NCBI GenBank assembly: GCA_946478865.1
Contig: CAMLDO010000065.1
Span: 1 to 6,227 of the forward strand
Length of the DNA stretch: 6,227 nt
Origin: an uncultured Methylobacillus sp.
GTDB taxonomy: Bacteria > Pseudomonadota > Gammaproteobacteria > Burkholderiales > Methylophilaceae
Direction of reading: 5' to 3'
Below, piece by piece: positions 1,405-6,227 of this stretch (positions are counted from its first letter, which is position 1; each line of letters begins with the position of its first letter). Below the pieces are notes generated by a model. It had not been told where the DNA came from, did not search any database, and was given only the letters and a program-made list of their open reading frames with translations. A program made the translations under genes and the position numbers.

Positions 1405-2480
1405 GCTTGCTCACCTCCTGCCCCGCCTGCGGCACGGTGTTCAGAATCAAACCCGAGCAGCTGGCCCCCAGCCGCGGCGATGTGCGCTGCGGCAAGTGCG
1501 GCGAGGTGTTCAATGCCCTGCAATCCTTGAGCGTCAACCAGACGCAACCAGCCAGTGACGACGCACTCCAGGAATTCTTTGTTCCGGCCGCAGAAGCGGC
1601 GCCTGCCCAAGACCCCGAAATCCCTGGAGCCCCAACGGCCGATTCGGATTTAGCCAAGCCGACGTTGCCAAAACCTGTGCCTGAGCAAGAATCGGAAGAA
1701 ATCGTCCTGGATTTCAATATTCCGTTCGACATGGAGGACGCGCCTGCAAAGCCGTCGCCGCAATCGGAGGCGCCGGCCACGCCCGAACCGCTTCCACAAT
1801 TCGAAGCGCCACAGCCACAGCCACAGCCACAGCCACAGCCACAGCCACAGCCACAGCCGGAACCGGAACCGGAACCGGAACCGGAACCGGAACCGGAACC
1901 GGAACCGGAACGCAAGAGCGTGGTACCGCCTGCGCCGGCAGTCAATATTCCGCCTACTCCGGCAAGCTCCCGCAAAACACCCGGCAAGAAGAAAAGACGC
2001 GGACCTTTGGTCTGGCCATGGATTACGGCATGCGCCCTGGCGCTGCTGTTTCTGTTCGGCCAGACGCTCTTTCAGCTGCGCTCGCAGATCGCCACGATGC
2101 TTCCCCAAACCAAGCCCTTGCTGGAGCAGGCCTGTGCCGCGATGGGGTGTAAAGTGGAGCTGCCGCGCAATGCACAATTACTGAGCATCGACGAGTCCGA
2201 CCTGCAGGAGCACCCGGATCACAAGGATGTGCTTCTCCTGACCGCATCCATCGTAAACCGCGCGTCTTACACCCAGGCGTATCCCTTGCTGGAAGTGACA
2301 CTGACCGATCTCCGCGATGCTGCCATACTGCGCCGCACACTGCGACCGCAGGAATATCTTCCGCCCGGCACGCCTGTCGAGAAGGGGCTGGGAGCGCAAT
2401 CCGACATCCGGATCAAGCTTGCCTTTACCGCTGCGGACGTCCCTGCCACGGGCTATCGGGTATACGTGCGCTACCCCTAA
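1401..2480 (+). CDS. Zinc-ribbon, single-pass membrane protein with DUF3426 domain
   Basis: This is a family of unknown function, recognised here by its architecture. Residues 3-36 form an MJ0042-type zinc ribbon with two Cys pairs, C7/C10 in CPAC and C30/C33 in CGKC. Residues about 45-195 are a low-complexity, acidic, proline-rich linker that includes (PQ)8(PE)9 at 137-170. A Lys/Arg-rich stretch (KKKRRG) then precedes one transmembrane segment at about 204-224. The C-terminal 130 residues resemble the DUF3426 domain, ending in GYRVYVRYP. By the positive-inside rule the zinc ribbon should be cytoplasmic and the DUF3426 domain periplasmic. The ATG overlaps the prmA stop and has no clear Shine-Dalgarno of its own, so expression probably depends on coupling to prmA. 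The function cannot be read from the sequence; an envelope or regulatory role is only a guess from the topology. Confidence 0.88.
   Translation: MSLLTSCPACGTVFRIKPEQLAPSRGDVRCGKCGEVFNALQSLSVNQTQPASDDALQEFFVPAAEAAPAQDPEIPGAPTADSDLAKPTLPKPVPEQESEEIVLDFNIPFDMEDAPAKPSPQSEAPATPEPLPQFEAPQPQPQPQPQPQPQPQPEPEPEPEPEPEPEPEPERKSVVPPAPAVNIPPTPASSRKTPGKKKRRGPLVWPWITACALALLFLFGQTLFQLRSQIATMLPQTKPLLEQACAAMGCKVELPRNAQLLSIDESDLQEHPDHKDVLLLTASIVNRASYTQAYPLLEVTLTDLRDAAILRRTLRPQEYLPPGTPVEKGLGAQSDIRIKLAFTAADVPATGYRVYVRYP
1809..1856 (+). repeat. Perfect tandem hexamer CCACAG x 8 (Pro-Gln repeat)
   Basis: Eight exact copies of CCACAG run in frame in the DUF3426-family gene and encode (PQ)8. The codons are identical throughout (CCA for Pro, CAG for Gln). 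The unit length is a multiple of three, so gain or loss of copies would change protein length without a frameshift. Confidence 0.95.
1857..1910 (+). repeat. Perfect tandem hexamer CCGGAA x 9 (Pro-Glu repeat)
   Basis: Nine exact copies of CCGGAA directly follow the CCACAG tract and encode (PE)9. The proline codon switches abruptly from CCA to CCG at the junction (1857), so the two tracts probably expanded separately. The result is a stiff, acidic spacer in front of the membrane segment of the host protein. Confidence 0.95.
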
Positions 2481-3265: not shown

Positions 3266-3282
3266 TTGGCATGGCAGTTGCT
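3266..3282 (+). promoter_or_regulatory. Sigma-54 (RpoN) promoter of the ANTAR regulator gene
   Basis: TTGGCATGGCAGTTGCT matches the sigma-54 consensus YTGGCACGRNNNTTGCW at all defined positions but one (T for C in the -24 element). The invariant GG (3268-3269) and GC (3280-3281) are separated by exactly 10 bases, as sigma-54 requires. Transcription should start near 3293, giving a leader of about 24 bases before the ATG at 3317. Together with the upstream NtrC-like palindrome this points to nitrogen-limitation control. Confidence 0.82.
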
Positions 3283-3316: not shown

Positions 3317-3892
3317 ATGCTCCGAGTAATGATTGTCGACGAGAACAGGGAGCGTTCCGCTCCATTAAAACAATATCTCGACGAAGCAGGCTACACCGTG
3401 GTGGGCCATCTTTCGGATACCGCCGACCTGAACAAGGCGGTGGCCCAGATGAAGCCGGACGTGATCATCATCGACACGGAATCGCCCAGCCGCGACACGC
3501 TGGAACATATCTGCGTGGTAAGCCGCGATGATCCGCGGGCCATCGTGATGTTCTCGCATGACGGGGAAACCGAAAAGATACGTGCAGCAACACGGGCGGG
3601 CGTATCGGCATATGTGGTCGGTAGCCTGGAAAGTGCACGCCTGCGGCCGATTCTGGATGCAGCGCTGGTGCGCTTCGAGGAATACCAGGCGCTGAAGAAT
3701 GAACTGGAAATGACCGCGACCAAACTCGCGGAGCGCAAGACGATAGACCGCGCGAAAGGGATTCTCATGAAACAGCGCGGCCTGGACGAGGATGCGGCGT
3801 ACCAATCGCTGCGCAAGCTCGCAATGCAACGCGGAATGCGCATGGGCGAAATTGCCCAACAGGTCATACAGGCAGCAGAACTGCTGTCTTAG
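3317..3892 (+). CDS. nasT: NasT-like response regulator with ANTAR RNA-binding domain
   Basis: This protein is predicted to be a transcription antiterminator for nitrate assimilation genes: in NasT-type systems the ANTAR domain binds paired hairpins in the leader RNA and prevents termination. The 191-residue protein has a receiver-like domain at about 1-120, with acidic residues D8 and E9 and a possible acceptor D53. S80 takes the conserved Thr/Ser place. The usual receiver lysine (KP motif) is replaced around V101, so classical phosphorylation control is doubtful. A helical linker (about 120-138) leads to the ANTAR domain at about 136-190, with the signature DRAKGILMKQRGLDEDAAY and the helix GMRMGEIAQQVI. 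The start follows from the Shine-Dalgarno at 3307 and the sigma-54 promoter at 3266. The gene sits directly before a two-hairpin leader and nrtAB. No nasS is adjacent. AmiR is the alternative family, but the nitrate transporter context favours NasT. Confidence 0.88.
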   Translation: MLRVMIVDENRERSAPLKQYLDEAGYTVVGHLSDTADLNKAVAQMKPDVIIIDTESPSRDTLEHICVVSRDDPRAIVMFSHDGETEKIRAATRAGVSAYVVGSLESARLRPILDAALVRFEEYQALKNELEMTATKLAERKTIDRAKGILMKQRGLDEDAAYQSLRKLAMQRGMRMGEIAQQVIQAAELLS

Positions 3893-3899
3893 GGGTAAA

Positions 3900-3979
3900 A
3901 CGATCCGGCCCAGCGTCGGACGGGATCGTGAAAATGACGGCAAGCCGACGAAGGCGAGCCAACGAGACAAGGGCGTCTT
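3900..3979 (+). promoter_or_regulatory. ANTAR-type two-hairpin antiterminator leader of nrtA
   Basis: Two hairpins with six-base loops can be drawn. P1 has arms 3900-3911 and 3918-3929 (12 positions, 10 paired, 2 mismatches) and loop AGCGTC at 3912-3917. P2 has arms 3964-3968 and 3975-3979 (5 pairs, one G-U) and loop AAGGGC at 3969-3974. Both loops have A at position 1 and G at position 4, the hallmark of RNAs bound by ANTAR proteins such as NasR and EutV. A linker of 34 bases separates them. P2 uses bases 3969-3979, which also form the 5' arm of the downstream terminator, so P2 and the terminator cannot coexist. P1 begins only 7 bases after the regulator's stop codon. The pairing was done by hand; protein binding is inferred. 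Confidence 0.78.
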
Positions 3980-4027
3980 TCAGCCGATTCGGAAAACCGG
4001 ATTGACGGAAAGACGCCCTTTTTGTTT
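3969..4027 (+). terminator. Conditional intrinsic terminator upstream of nrtA
   Basis: A perfect 13-bp stem joins AAGGGCGTCTTTC (3969-3981) to GAAAGACGCCCTT (4008-4020). After a 3-by-3 internal loop it continues as a second stem of 8 pairs (two G-U) capped by AAAA at 3993-3996. The stem is followed by a T-rich run, TTTTTGTTT. The terminator sits between the ANTAR regulator gene and nrtA on the same strand, with its 5' arm overlapping the P2 hairpin, so it is best read as an attenuator rather than a plain end of operon. Confidence 0.9.
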
Positions 4028-4073: not shown

Positions 4074-5351
4074 ATGAAGTTTTTACACAAGAAGCCCCAA
4101 GCGCTGCCGGTGAACCCGGAACGCCGCCAGTTCCTGCAAGGCGCAGCGGCGGCAGCCAGCGCTGCTGCAGTGGTCGGCATGGGTTCGCTCGGAATCCAGA
4201 ACACCGCATGGGCCGCCGGTTCGGATGCTCCCGAATTGACCGAAGTGAAGATCGGCTTCATTCCGCTGACCGACTGCGCGCCGATCGCGGTGGCCGCCGC
4301 CATGGGCTTCGACAAGAAGTACGGCATCAAGATCACCCCGTCCAAGGAAGCTTCCTGGGCCGGCGTGCGCGACAAGATGGTGAACGGTGAGCTGCATGCC
4401 GCCCACGTGCTGTATGGCCTGGTGTACGGCGTCCAGCTCGGCATCGGCGGTCCGCAGAAGGACATGGCGGTGCTCATGACGCTCAACCACAACGGGCAGG
4501 CCATCACCCTGGCGAACCAGCTGAGCGAAAAAGGGGTGAAGGATGGCGCCACCCTGAAGCGCATGCTGGACAACGAGAACCGCGACTACACCTTCGCACA
4601 GACCTTCCCCACCGGCACCCACGCCATGTGGCTGTATTACTGGCTGGCGACTTACGGCATCAACCCGATGAAGGACGTGAAGACCATCGTCGTGCCACCC
4701 CCGCAAATGGTCGCCAACATGCGTGTCGGCAACATGGACGGCTACTGCGTTGGCGAGCCGTGGAATGCCCGGGCGATTAGCGACAAGATCGGCTTTACCG
4801 CCGCCACAACCCAGGACATCTGGACCGATCACCCGGAAAAGGTGCTCGGCACCACCGCCGCTTTTGTGCAGAAATACCCCAACACCGCACGCGCAATCAT
4901 CATGGCCGTGCTGGATGCCAGCCGTTACATCGATGCCACCGCCAACCGCGCGGCCGTAGCCAAGCTGATCTCCAGCAAGTCCTACGTCAACGCGCCGGAA
5001 GACGTGATCCTGGGCCGCTTCCTCGGCCACTACGACAACGGCATCGGCAAGAAGTGGGAAGACCCGAACTACATGAAATTCTTCAATGACGGCAAGGTGC
5101 CCTTCCCCTACCTGTCCGACGGCATGTGGTTCATGACGCAGCACAAGCGCTGGGGTTTGCTCAAGACCGATCCGGATTACCTCGGCGTCGCCAAGAAGGT
5201 GAACCAGATCGCGCTGTACAAGGAAGCCGCCGGCGCGCTGGGCATCAGCGTCCCCAAGGACGAGATGCGCACTTCCAAGCTCATCGATGGCGTGGTGTGG
5301 GACGGCAAGGATCCCAAGGCCTATGCCAACTCGTTCAAGGTCAAGGTCTGA
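4074..5351 (+). CDS. nrtA: Nitrate/nitrite ABC transporter substrate-binding protein, Tat-exported
   Basis: This is the periplasmic binding component of a high-affinity nitrate/nitrite importer of the NrtA/CmpA family. The 425-residue protein starts with a twin-arginine signal: R17-R18 in ERRQFLQ, an Ala-rich hydrophobic stretch at about 23-42, and a likely cleavage after AWA (residue 47). The mature protein begins close to VKIGFIPLTDCAPIAVA. W95, G97, Q142, H183 and K256 fall where the nitrate-contacting residues of Synechocystis NrtA (W102, G104, Q155, H196, K269) are expected, as recalled from that structure. This favours nitrate over bicarbonate (CmpA). The start is supported by AAAGGAG at 4061-4067. 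The Tat signal argues against this being NasS, the cytoplasmic nitrate sensor of the same fold. Synthesis should depend on read-through of the upstream attenuator. nrtB follows after 28 bases. Confidence 0.93.
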   Translation: MKFLHKKPQALPVNPERRQFLQGAAAAASAAAVVGMGSLGIQNTAWAAGSDAPELTEVKIGFIPLTDCAPIAVAAAMGFDKKYGIKITPSKEASWAGVRDKMVNGELHAAHVLYGLVYGVQLGIGGPQKDMAVLMTLNHNGQAITLANQLSEKGVKDGATLKRMLDNENRDYTFAQTFPTGTHAMWLYYWLATYGINPMKDVKTIVVPPPQMVANMRVGNMDGYCVGEPWNARAISDKIGFTAATTQDIWTDHPEKVLGTTAAFVQKYPNTARAIIMAVLDASRYIDATANRAAVAKLISSKSYVNAPEDVILGRFLGHYDNGIGKKWEDPNYMKFFNDGKVPFPYLSDGMWFMTQHKRWGLLKTDPDYLGVAKKVNQIALYKEAAGALGISVPKDEMRTSKLIDGVVWDGKDPKAYANSFKVKV

Positions 5352-5379: not shown

Positions 5380-6227
5380 ATGAGCGCAACTGTCGTCGCA
5401 CTCAAACCGGAAGCGGCCGAGCAGGCTGCGGCCGTACCCGGCAAAACCGAGTCCACTCCTCCGCCTCAGGCGGAGGCCACCCCAGTTGCGGGAGAAACAC
5501 GTCAACGCATCATGAGTACATTACGCACCATTACCCTTGCTGTTCTGCCGCCCATGGTGGGCCTCGCGCTGTTCCTCCTGATCTGGGTCGGGATTTCGAT
5601 GGTTTCCCCGTCTCTGCCGGGACCGGCCAAGACCTGGGATTCCGCCGTGGTACTGTTCAGCGATCCGTTCTACCAGAACGGCCCCAATGATCAGGGCATA
5701 GGCTGGAACATTCTCAACTCGCTGCAGCGCGTCGGCATGGGCTTCGGCATGGCAGCGGTGATCGGCATACCGCTGGGCTTCGTGCTGGGCCGCTTCAAGT
5801 TCATGAACGACATGGCTTCGCCCATCATCAGCCTGCTGCGCCCGGTTTCGCCGCTCGCCTGGCTGCCGATCGGCCTGCTGGTGTTCAAGGCAGCCGACCC
5901 CGCCGCAATCTGGGTGATCTTCATCTCCAGCATCTGGCCGCTCGTCATCAATACCGCGATGGGCGTTTCCAAGGTGCCGCAGGATTACCTCAACGTCGCC
6001 CGCGTGCTCAACCTGTCCGAATGGAAGATCGCGACCAAGATCATGCTGCCGTCCGCGATGCCCTACATCCTGACCGGTATCCGCCTCTCCATCGGCGTGG
6101 CCTGGCTGGTGATCGTGGCCGCGGAAATGCTGACCGGCGGCGTGGGCCTGGGCTTCTGGGTGTGGGATGAATGGAACAACCTCAACGTGGAGCACATCCT
6201 GATCGCGATCTTCGTGGTCGGCATCGT
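5380..6227 (+). CDS. nrtB: Nitrate/nitrite ABC transporter permease, 5' part (3' end outside window)
   Basis: This is the inner-membrane permease of the same importer. The reading frame starts at ATG 5380, with AGGAG at 5369-5373, and stays open to the window edge (282 codons plus two bases). Residues 1-45 are a hydrophilic Ala/Pro-rich cytoplasmic extension. Hydrophobic segments follow at about 50-75, then around MGFGMAAVIGIPLGFVLG, LAWLPIGLLVF, AAIWVIFISSIWPLVI, LSIGVAWLVIVAAEML and the final ILIAIFVVGIV. The coupling loop characteristic of importer permeases (EAA loop) starts at about N205, NVARVLNLSEWKIATK through MLPSAMPYILTGIRL, and should contact the ATPase subunit. The ABC nitrate permease family is clear from LPGPAKTW and LRPVSPLAWLPIGLL. 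An internal ATG at 5512 (codon 45) lacks a Shine-Dalgarno. The ATPase gene (nrtC/nrtD type) is expected beyond the window. Confidence 0.92.
   Translation, partial: MSATVVALKPEAAEQAAAVPGKTESTPPPQAEATPVAGETRQRIMSTLRTITLAVLPPMVGLALFLLIWVGISMVSPSLPGPAKTWDSAVVLFSDPFYQNGPNDQGIGWNILNSLQRVGMGFGMAAVIGIPLGFVLGRFKFMNDMASPIISLLRPVSPLAWLPIGLLVFKAADPAAIWVIFISSIWPLVINTAMGVSKVPQDYLNVARVLNLSEWKIATKIMLPSAMPYILTGIRLSIGVAWLVIVAAEMLTGGVGLGFWVWDEWNNLNVEHILIAIFVVGI
5458..5476. repeat. Perfect 8-bp inverted repeat with 3-base loop inside nrtB
   Basis: CCTCCGCC and GGCGGAGG flank TCA, giving a stable GC-rich hairpin about 80 bases into nrtB. It encodes part of the low-complexity N-terminal extension (PPPQAEA region). 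No T-run follows, so it is not an intrinsic terminator. Confidence 0.85.

What the first reader, a model, noticed from the sequence alone, without database searches (positions are those of the whole stretch)
3900..4027. Nitrate-responsive ANTAR attenuator with mutually exclusive P2 and terminator
Sequence: two hairpins with hexaloops AGCGTC and AAGGGC, both A1 and G4, precede a 13-bp plus 8-bp terminator stem with a T-run. Bases 3969-3979 belong to both P2 and the terminator. Known: NasR, NasT and EutV bind exactly such loop pairs. Inference: NasT binding stabilises P1-P2 and lets polymerase read into nrtAB. P2 is short (5 pairs), so it would need protein to compete with the terminator.
Basis: partly seen in the sequence, partly recalled or inferred. 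Interest (0 to 1): 0.75.

Follow-up and report, generated by a model that had tools for sequence, protein, structure and literature searches.

The report
Three-hairpin nitrate-gene RNA switch
Between a bacterial regulator gene (nasT) and the nitrate-uptake genes after it lies an RNA off-switch that the regulator is expected to open; in relatives it usually carries three docking hairpins rather than the two known from studied cases, and most of the relatives tested lack the usual nitrate-sensor partner.

Summary
The attenuator is real. Window 3900-4027 has two A1/G4 hexaloop hairpins (loops 3912-3917, 3969-3974); the second overlaps a strong terminator. A covariance model from 12 relatives, window left out, finds 3904-3979 as its only window hit (E=1.2e-5).

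In relatives it usually has its own A1/G4 hexaloop: 48 of 60 Methylophilaceae nasT leaders have two or more such loops upstream of P2; in the 45 with shuffle controls it is 34, against at most 2 in shuffles. Eight leaders of other families share the layout. But in the window and its closest relative the middle loop has G1 instead of A1, so P0+P2 stays a live alternative.

A sigma54-type site precedes nasT in 63 of 67 Methylophilaceae loci, suggesting one nasT-leader-nrt transcript. NasS, NasT's usual nitrate sensor, is missing from 24 of 34 NasT genomes tested, so nitrate sensing is open. New variant of the known ANTAR attenuator.

The parts
3267..3282 (+). sigma54-type promoter-like site TGGCATGGCAGTTGCT, 50 nt before the nasT start
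   Evidence: 10 of 11 consensus positions; the same kind of site lies 26-64 nt before nasT in 63 of 67 Methylophilaceae loci, against 6 of 4640 control bins elsewhere in the loci
3317..3892 (+). nasT: REC-ANTAR protein, 191 aa
   Evidence: PF03861 E=1.3e-20, PF00072 E=3.8e-11; aligns with EutV 6wsh over residues 3-185
3900..3929 (+).
   Evidence: fold; equivalent upstream hexaloop hairpins in relatives
3939..3960 (+).
   Evidence: fold; same place in L001 with loop GATGCA; A1/G4 hexaloop at this place in most relatives
3964..3979 (+). P2: antiterminator hairpin, 5 bp, hexaloop AAGGGC at 3969-3974
   Evidence: fold; a GAC/GGC-A..G..-GTC type P2 motif found in all 60 Methylophilaceae leaders
3969..4023 (+). 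intrinsic terminator (stem 3969-4020, then T-run) that shares 3969-3979 with P2
   Evidence: fold; consensus folds
4074..5351 (+). nrtA: nitrate-type ABC substrate-binding protein with Tat-like signal
   Evidence: PF13379 E=1.8e-107; TAT_signal PF10518 E=3e-4, 21.0 bits, just under its cut-off of 22.7
5380..6225 (+). nrtB: nitrate ABC transporter permease, runs off the window
   Evidence: TIGR01183 244 bits, cut-off 209

Best explanation
An intercistronic ANTAR transcription attenuator with three hexaloop-type hairpins (P0-P1-P2). A sigma54-type promoter before nasT makes a transcript that encodes NasT and then runs into the leader. By default P0 and P1 fold and the arm that could make P2 is taken by the terminator, so mainly nasT mRNA is made. 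When NasT is active, dimers dock on P0 and P1 as they leave RNA polymerase and are handed on to P2 (P1-P2 loop spacing 22 nt); holding P2 blocks the terminator and transcription enters nrtAB and the genes beyond. Shown by sequence: hairpins, terminator overlap, conservation and covariation in relatives, promoter-like site, NasT's RNA-contact residues. Inferred: binding, order of hand-off, read-through, nitrate as the signal. In the window P1 has G1 in place of A1; since A1 makes no protein contact in the EutV structure, I expect P1 still to work, perhaps weakly, with P0 helping.
For: Covariance model from 12 relatives without window or L001 finds 3904-3979, its sole window hit, E=1.2e-5. Two or more A1/G4 hexaloops upstream of P2 in 48 of 60 Methylophilaceae NasT leaders; with shuffle control 34 of 45, shuffles mean 0.10, maximum 2. 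Unsupervised consensus folds recover P0, P1 and terminator in 18 and in 7 leaders, covariation score above all 500 shuffles and all slid versions. EutV contacts R142, K143, Y164, M172 are kept in NasT and K147 is Arg (alignment, residues named in PMC8934654). That paper finds a dimer grips one hexaloop at a time and proposes a recruitment hairpin that hands over to P2, so a third hexaloop is a third docking site. Promoter before nasT and none seen between nasT and nrtA in the window.
Against: The window fails the automatic A1/G4 rule for both upstream hairpins, and its model match has three non-standard pairs, one in P0 and two in P1. A1-to-U lowered EutV induction. P1-P2 spacing is 17-22 nt in part of the family but 28-34 nt in most and 46 in two, longer than eutP's 24. 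In the 18-leader set P1 and P2 hardly vary, and two of five covariation measures do not beat the shuffles. NasR-type leaders of the family manage without a middle A1/G4 loop in most cases. No binding or expression data.
Confidence: 0.6

Rival explanations
1. Only two working hexaloops: P0 and P2, with the middle hairpin a structured spacer that brings them together; its docking function is lost in the Methylobacillus branch.
For: In the window and L001 the middle loop is G1/G4 while P0 and P2 keep A1/G4. NasR-type leaders of the same family have an upstream A1/G4 loop 55-151 nt before P2 and, in the last 75 nt, hairpins mostly with other loops, often of 4 nt.
Against: Distance 57 nt, where EutV fails with a longer linker. 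In most relatives the middle loop is A1/G4, and it keeps G4 in the window.
Confidence: 0.28
2. P0 is a decoy that binds NasT without opening the switch and so sets a threshold for the amount of NasT made from the same transcript.
For: EutX RNA titrates EutV and has a third single hexaloop beside its dual motif (PMC8934654). NasT is encoded just upstream.
Against: P0 is kept with P2 in leaders whose middle loop is not A1/G4 (L001, L007, L014), which fits a needed docking site better.
Confidence: 0.06
3. An ordinary nasT terminator with chance hexaloops; nrtA has its own promoter and is not controlled here.
For: A strong terminator directly after a gene is common; the simple scans found no special feature.
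Against: Conserved A1/G4 loops far above shuffles, covariance hit, P2-terminator overlap in relatives, no promoter-like site before nrtA in the window.
Confidence: 0.05

Closest known systems
EutV / eutP-type dual-hexaloop attenuators, Enterococcus faecalis (PMC3369931, PMC8934654)
   Same: REC-ANTAR protein; hexaloops with A1/G4; P2 overlaps the terminator; P1-P2 loop distance 24 in eutP, 22 here.
   Different: A further hexaloop hairpin (P0) upstream; G1 in the middle loop here; receiver lysine not kept (K in EutV, G here); regulator and target apparently on one transcript.
NasS-NasT control of nasA, Paracoccus denitrificans (PMC3795266, PMC5424462; passages read)
   Same: NasT with an RNA leader before nitrate assimilation genes; nasT promoter under nitrogen control.
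   Different: There NasS is encoded beside NasT and holds it until nitrate binds; here no NasS in most relatives tested. Two hairpins, HI and HII, are described there.
NasR / nasF leader of Klebsiella, and NasR-type (long ANTAR ORF) leaders of Methylophilaceae
   Same: Nitrate assimilation genes, A1/G4 hexaloops, sigma54-type site; the P2 loop AAAGGC is the same in the Methylophilaceae set.
   Different: A longer ANTAR protein (424-466 aa open frames; taken as NIT-ANTAR from recall, not tested); usually no middle A1/G4 hexaloop.
EutX sRNA (PMC8934654 discussion)
   Same: A dual hexaloop motif plus one more single hexaloop with G4.
   Different: A sequestering RNA, not a leader in front of a structural operon.

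Membership tests
ANTAR dual-hexaloop attenuator | P2 hexaloop with A1 and G4 whose bases overlap an intrinsic terminator | tested here: met
   3964-3979 and 3969-4020
ANTAR dual-hexaloop attenuator | an upstream hexaloop with A1 and G4 | tested here: met
   P0 loop 3912-3917 AGCGTC, but on an interrupted stem
ANTAR dual-hexaloop attenuator | an A1/G4 hexaloop at the short canonical distance from P2 (eutP loop-to-loop 24) | tested here: inconclusive
   hairpin at 22 nt has G4 but G1 (3947-3952); the A1/G4 one is 57 nt away
ANTAR dual-hexaloop attenuator | exactly two hexaloops | tested here: not met
   three hexaloop hairpins in the window (one G1), two or more A1/G4 upstream of P2 in 48 of 60 relatives
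ANTAR dual-hexaloop attenuator | ANTAR protein binds and causes read-through | not testable with these tools
   needs binding and transcription assays
ANTAR protein family (PF03861) | domain match and RNA-contact residues | tested here: met
   E=1.3e-20; R142, K143, Y164, M172 kept, K147 to Arg
NasS-NasT system | NasS partner, a signal-less NrtA-like sensor | tested here: inconclusive
   absent in 24 of 34 relatives with NasT; the window's own genome is not held
Rfam families | match to any of 4227 covariance models | tested here: not met
   0 at gathering score; 3 unrelated weak matches

The most novel reading that the evidence does not exclude
NasT works here without NasS because NrtA, the transporter's binding protein made from the attenuated operon, is also the sensor. 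NrtA has a Tat-like signal; Tat cargo folds in the cytoplasm before export (recalled), so folded pre-NrtA could hold NasT until nitrate binds, closing a loop in which the switch's own product sets it, read out by a three-hexaloop relay. In four genomes a nasT is followed by an NrtA-like protein whose match starts after the signal region (63-66% identical to NrtA; the one read in full, in L063, has no such signal), as if the sensing role had split off there; in two of the four (G116, G134) it stands beside the ordinary nasT-nrtA pair.
Probability: 0.18. Interest if true: 0.8.

Novelty: new variant of a known kind. Interest (0 to 1): 0.55.

Why it matters
It is unsettled why ANTAR attenuators need two hexaloops when one dimer grips only one (PMC8934654). 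A natural, conserved three-hexaloop version, beside relatives with two loops or with a different spacer hairpin and nearly the same P2, gives a ready comparison for testing the recruitment and hand-off model. The missing NasS raises a second testable question: how such a NasT learns about nitrate.

Tried and rejected
Rfam gave nothing. The simple promoter/terminator scan did not report this terminator. Alignments A1-A3 mixed strands, because loci from the genome search are not oriented; they were redone as A4-A6 and only those are used (A5, with the window, was used only to look at).

Automatic P2 assignment missed 15 of 60 Methylophilaceae leaders, 24 of 28 loci of the other set and 3 of 19 NasR-type loci. 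One search, with a P2 motif, covers all 60 (48 with two or more, 11 with one, the window with none) but has no shuffle control of its own. Rows left out before these counts: L002 (moved to the other set), L049, L051, L057, L063 (signal-less NrtA copies), L064, L069, L071 (cut or no leader). One search used 55 leaders: it also lacks L026, L033, L067 (no terminator assigned), L040 (no P2 assigned) and L037 (set aside). Seven of the 60 are within a few per cent or one sequence cluster of another; one search gives the 43 that share few 8-mers. The 12 rows of A7 were chosen because they show all three hairpins, so its pair counts lean towards the structure. A4 and A6 were aligned without structure, but their rows too were picked by me.

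It said four non-standard pairs in the window's model match; there are three. It said that four genomes have a second nasT; two do.

Considered and dropped: sensing by phosphorylation (receiver lysine not kept; not excluded); a large NasT regulon (in 12 genomes only G109 has a second hit below E=0.01, but only 150 of 737-1142 first-look candidates per genome were scored).

Papers: PMC3369931 abstract, passages, section 7 and part 1 of section 10; PMC8934654 abstract, sections 24 and 26; PMC3795266, PMC5424462, PMC6759348 passages only; others as search listings. No paper describing a three-hexaloop ANTAR attenuator, or NasT in Methylophilaceae, was seen in searches, of which listings were read; subscription papers and supplements were not available.

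Full report
What is there. The window reads accC end, prmA, a DUF3426 gene, cheZ, a REC-ANTAR gene, the leader, nrtA and nrtB. The closest relative found is Methylobacillus sp. MM3 (NasT 91%). P0 starts 8 bases after the last base of the REC-ANTAR stop codon. A middle hairpin, 3939-3960, was not mentioned.

More than chance? The region folds far better than shuffles (z -5.99), though the terminator makes most of that. The stronger test is comparison. Of 187 genomes of the relative's family, 141 have a match to NasT at E<=0.001, many of them to other response regulators or longer ANTAR proteins; by my count of the listing 64 have one at E<=1e-57. Sixty leaders, the window's included, were read. 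In 55 of them, hexaloop hairpins with at least 4 pairs upstream of P2 carry A1/G4 in 90 cases; the next commonest loop type has 11. In 43 that share few 8-mers, 42 have at least one such hairpin and 26 at least two; 300 shuffles reached at most 12 and 2. With a looser stem rule (3 pairs, G-C closed, within 170 nt) 34 of 45 have two or more, shuffles mean 0.10, maximum 2; with P2 set by motif it is 48 of 60, 11 have one and the window none. The window scores zero because its P0 stem is interrupted and its middle loop has G1.

Structure in relatives. Consensus folds on plain MAFFT alignments recover P0, P1 and the terminator in 18 leaders and in 7 from other families. P0 stems change on both sides in both sets, P1 stems in the second. 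The covariation score is above all 500 shuffles and all slid versions. In the 18-leader set P1 and P2 hardly vary, so they say little about pairing there, and two measures (pairs changed on both sides, 87 of 500 shuffles; further pair types, 394 of 500) do not stand out. A covariance model from 12 leaders, without the window and L001, finds the window at 3904-3979 (27.9 bits, E=1.2e-5 in the window, 2.1e-4 in 110 kb), its sole hit there, and L001 at 43.1 bits. The window match has three non-standard pairs, one in P0 and two in P1. In 12 of 12 genomes the top hit is the nasT-nrtA leader; four of the 12 (G365, G424, G054, G180) supplied rows of the model, so eight are independent.

Which hairpins work together? 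In seven leaders with just two hexaloops the loops are 21-28 nt apart (L002, L102, L103, L106, L109, L116, L118); L112 has 39. eutP has 24, from the numbering in PMC3369931. In the 34 three-hairpin leaders the nearer hairpin is 17-22 nt from P2 in nine, 28-34 in 23 and 46 in two; the farthest is 55-117 nt. In eight leaders of other families (L092-L096, L100, L101, L104) the nearer distance is 21-25. The window has 22 and 57. Against this, the middle loop is G1/G4 in the window and L001, and the NasR-type leaders of the family have an upstream hexaloop 55-151 nt from P2 and in 3 of 16 cases a second one; their spacer hairpins have mixed loops. The two-hairpin reading therefore keeps 0.28.

Protein side. 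NasT aligns with EutV over residues 3-185. The hexaloop contacts named in PMC8934654 are kept (R142, K143, Y164, M172; K147 is Arg; the chain's numbering is shifted by 2). The receiver's aspartate is kept, the lysine is not. In the EutV structure A1 makes no contact and G4 stacks on Tyr164, so a G1/G4 loop may bind; but A1-to-U lowered induction.

Circuit. A sigma54-type site lies 26-64 nt before nasT in 63 of 67 Methylophilaceae loci, the window included; L049, L051, L060 and L064 lack it, and the same test is met in 6 of 4640 control bins. L060, L002 and several other-family loci have it between nasT and the leader. No promoter-like site was seen between nasT and nrtA in the window. So regulator and target are probably on one transcript with the attenuator between them. 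In Methylobacillus MM3 (L122) nrtA is followed by nrtB, an ABC ATPase, an Alginate_exp protein, an MFS transporter, a tetrapyrrole methylase and a nitrite-reductase-like gene, with other ORFs between.

Sensor. Known NasT is held by NasS until nitrate or nitrite binds (PMC3795266). Of 34 NasT genomes searched with NrtA (18, 16, six of these chosen because or one search suggested a second or signal-less copy), 24 hold a single NrtA/NasS-like protein, the one encoded just after nasT; G137 seems to hold one NrtA split over two contigs; G118 and G136 hold only the signal-less copy; G116, G134, G033, G166, G275, G315 and G414 hold two or three. Proteins of 36-43% identity were detected in four genomes, so a NasS of that likeness would have been seen; a more distant one might not. 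For eight of the 24 (G067, G107, G109, G110, G174, G334, G365, G403) one contig is as long as the stated genome. The family-wide PF13379 list is cut at weak E-values. Whether the window's organism has NasS cannot be tested.

Judgement. An ANTAR-type attenuator: about 0.93. The three-hexaloop relay as described: 0.6. Nitrate as the signal: likely from the genes controlled, unproven. The novelty is the third hexaloop and the NasS-less setting, not the principle of attenuation. Against the returned draft, only the two-hairpin rival moved (0.3 to 0.28), so that the odds of the rivals add up with the main reading.

Noticed in passing
L135:1388-1781 (G109): A second leader with sigma54-type site, A1/G4 hexaloop, a further hairpin, P2 (AAAGGC loop) and terminator stands before a gene with a PilJ domain (PF13675, E=4.7e-13), which may put a chemo- or nitrate-sensor-like protein under NasT or another ANTAR protein.
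   Followed up: partly
L063:503-2454 (also L049, L051, L057): nasT followed by an NrtA-like protein (63-66% identical) whose match starts after the signal region; L063 and L049 show a P2-like hexaloop between the two genes.
   Followed up: partly
L074-L091: In Methylophilaceae genomes with a longer ANTAR protein before nrtA, the upstream hexaloop and P2 are 55-151 nt apart, far beyond the EutV linker limit, with other hairpins between.
   Followed up: partly
L105, L108, L110, downstream of nasT: nasT is followed by a hexaloop leader and terminator before an outer-membrane-type protein gene instead of nrtA; the gene looks like the Alginate_exp protein of L122 by eye only.
   Followed up: no
L045, between terminator and nrtA: A long GTAGGAGC...GCTCCTAC palindrome, like a REP-type element, sits between terminator and nrtA and accounts for the long gap there.
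   Followed up: no
window 1811-1910: Tandem hexamer repeats in the DUF3426 gene encode runs of PQ and PE.
   Followed up: no
L098 and L099: Two other-family nasT loci have leaders whose P2 hexaloop looks degenerate, one before a gene without NrtA match in the stretch held.
   Followed up: no
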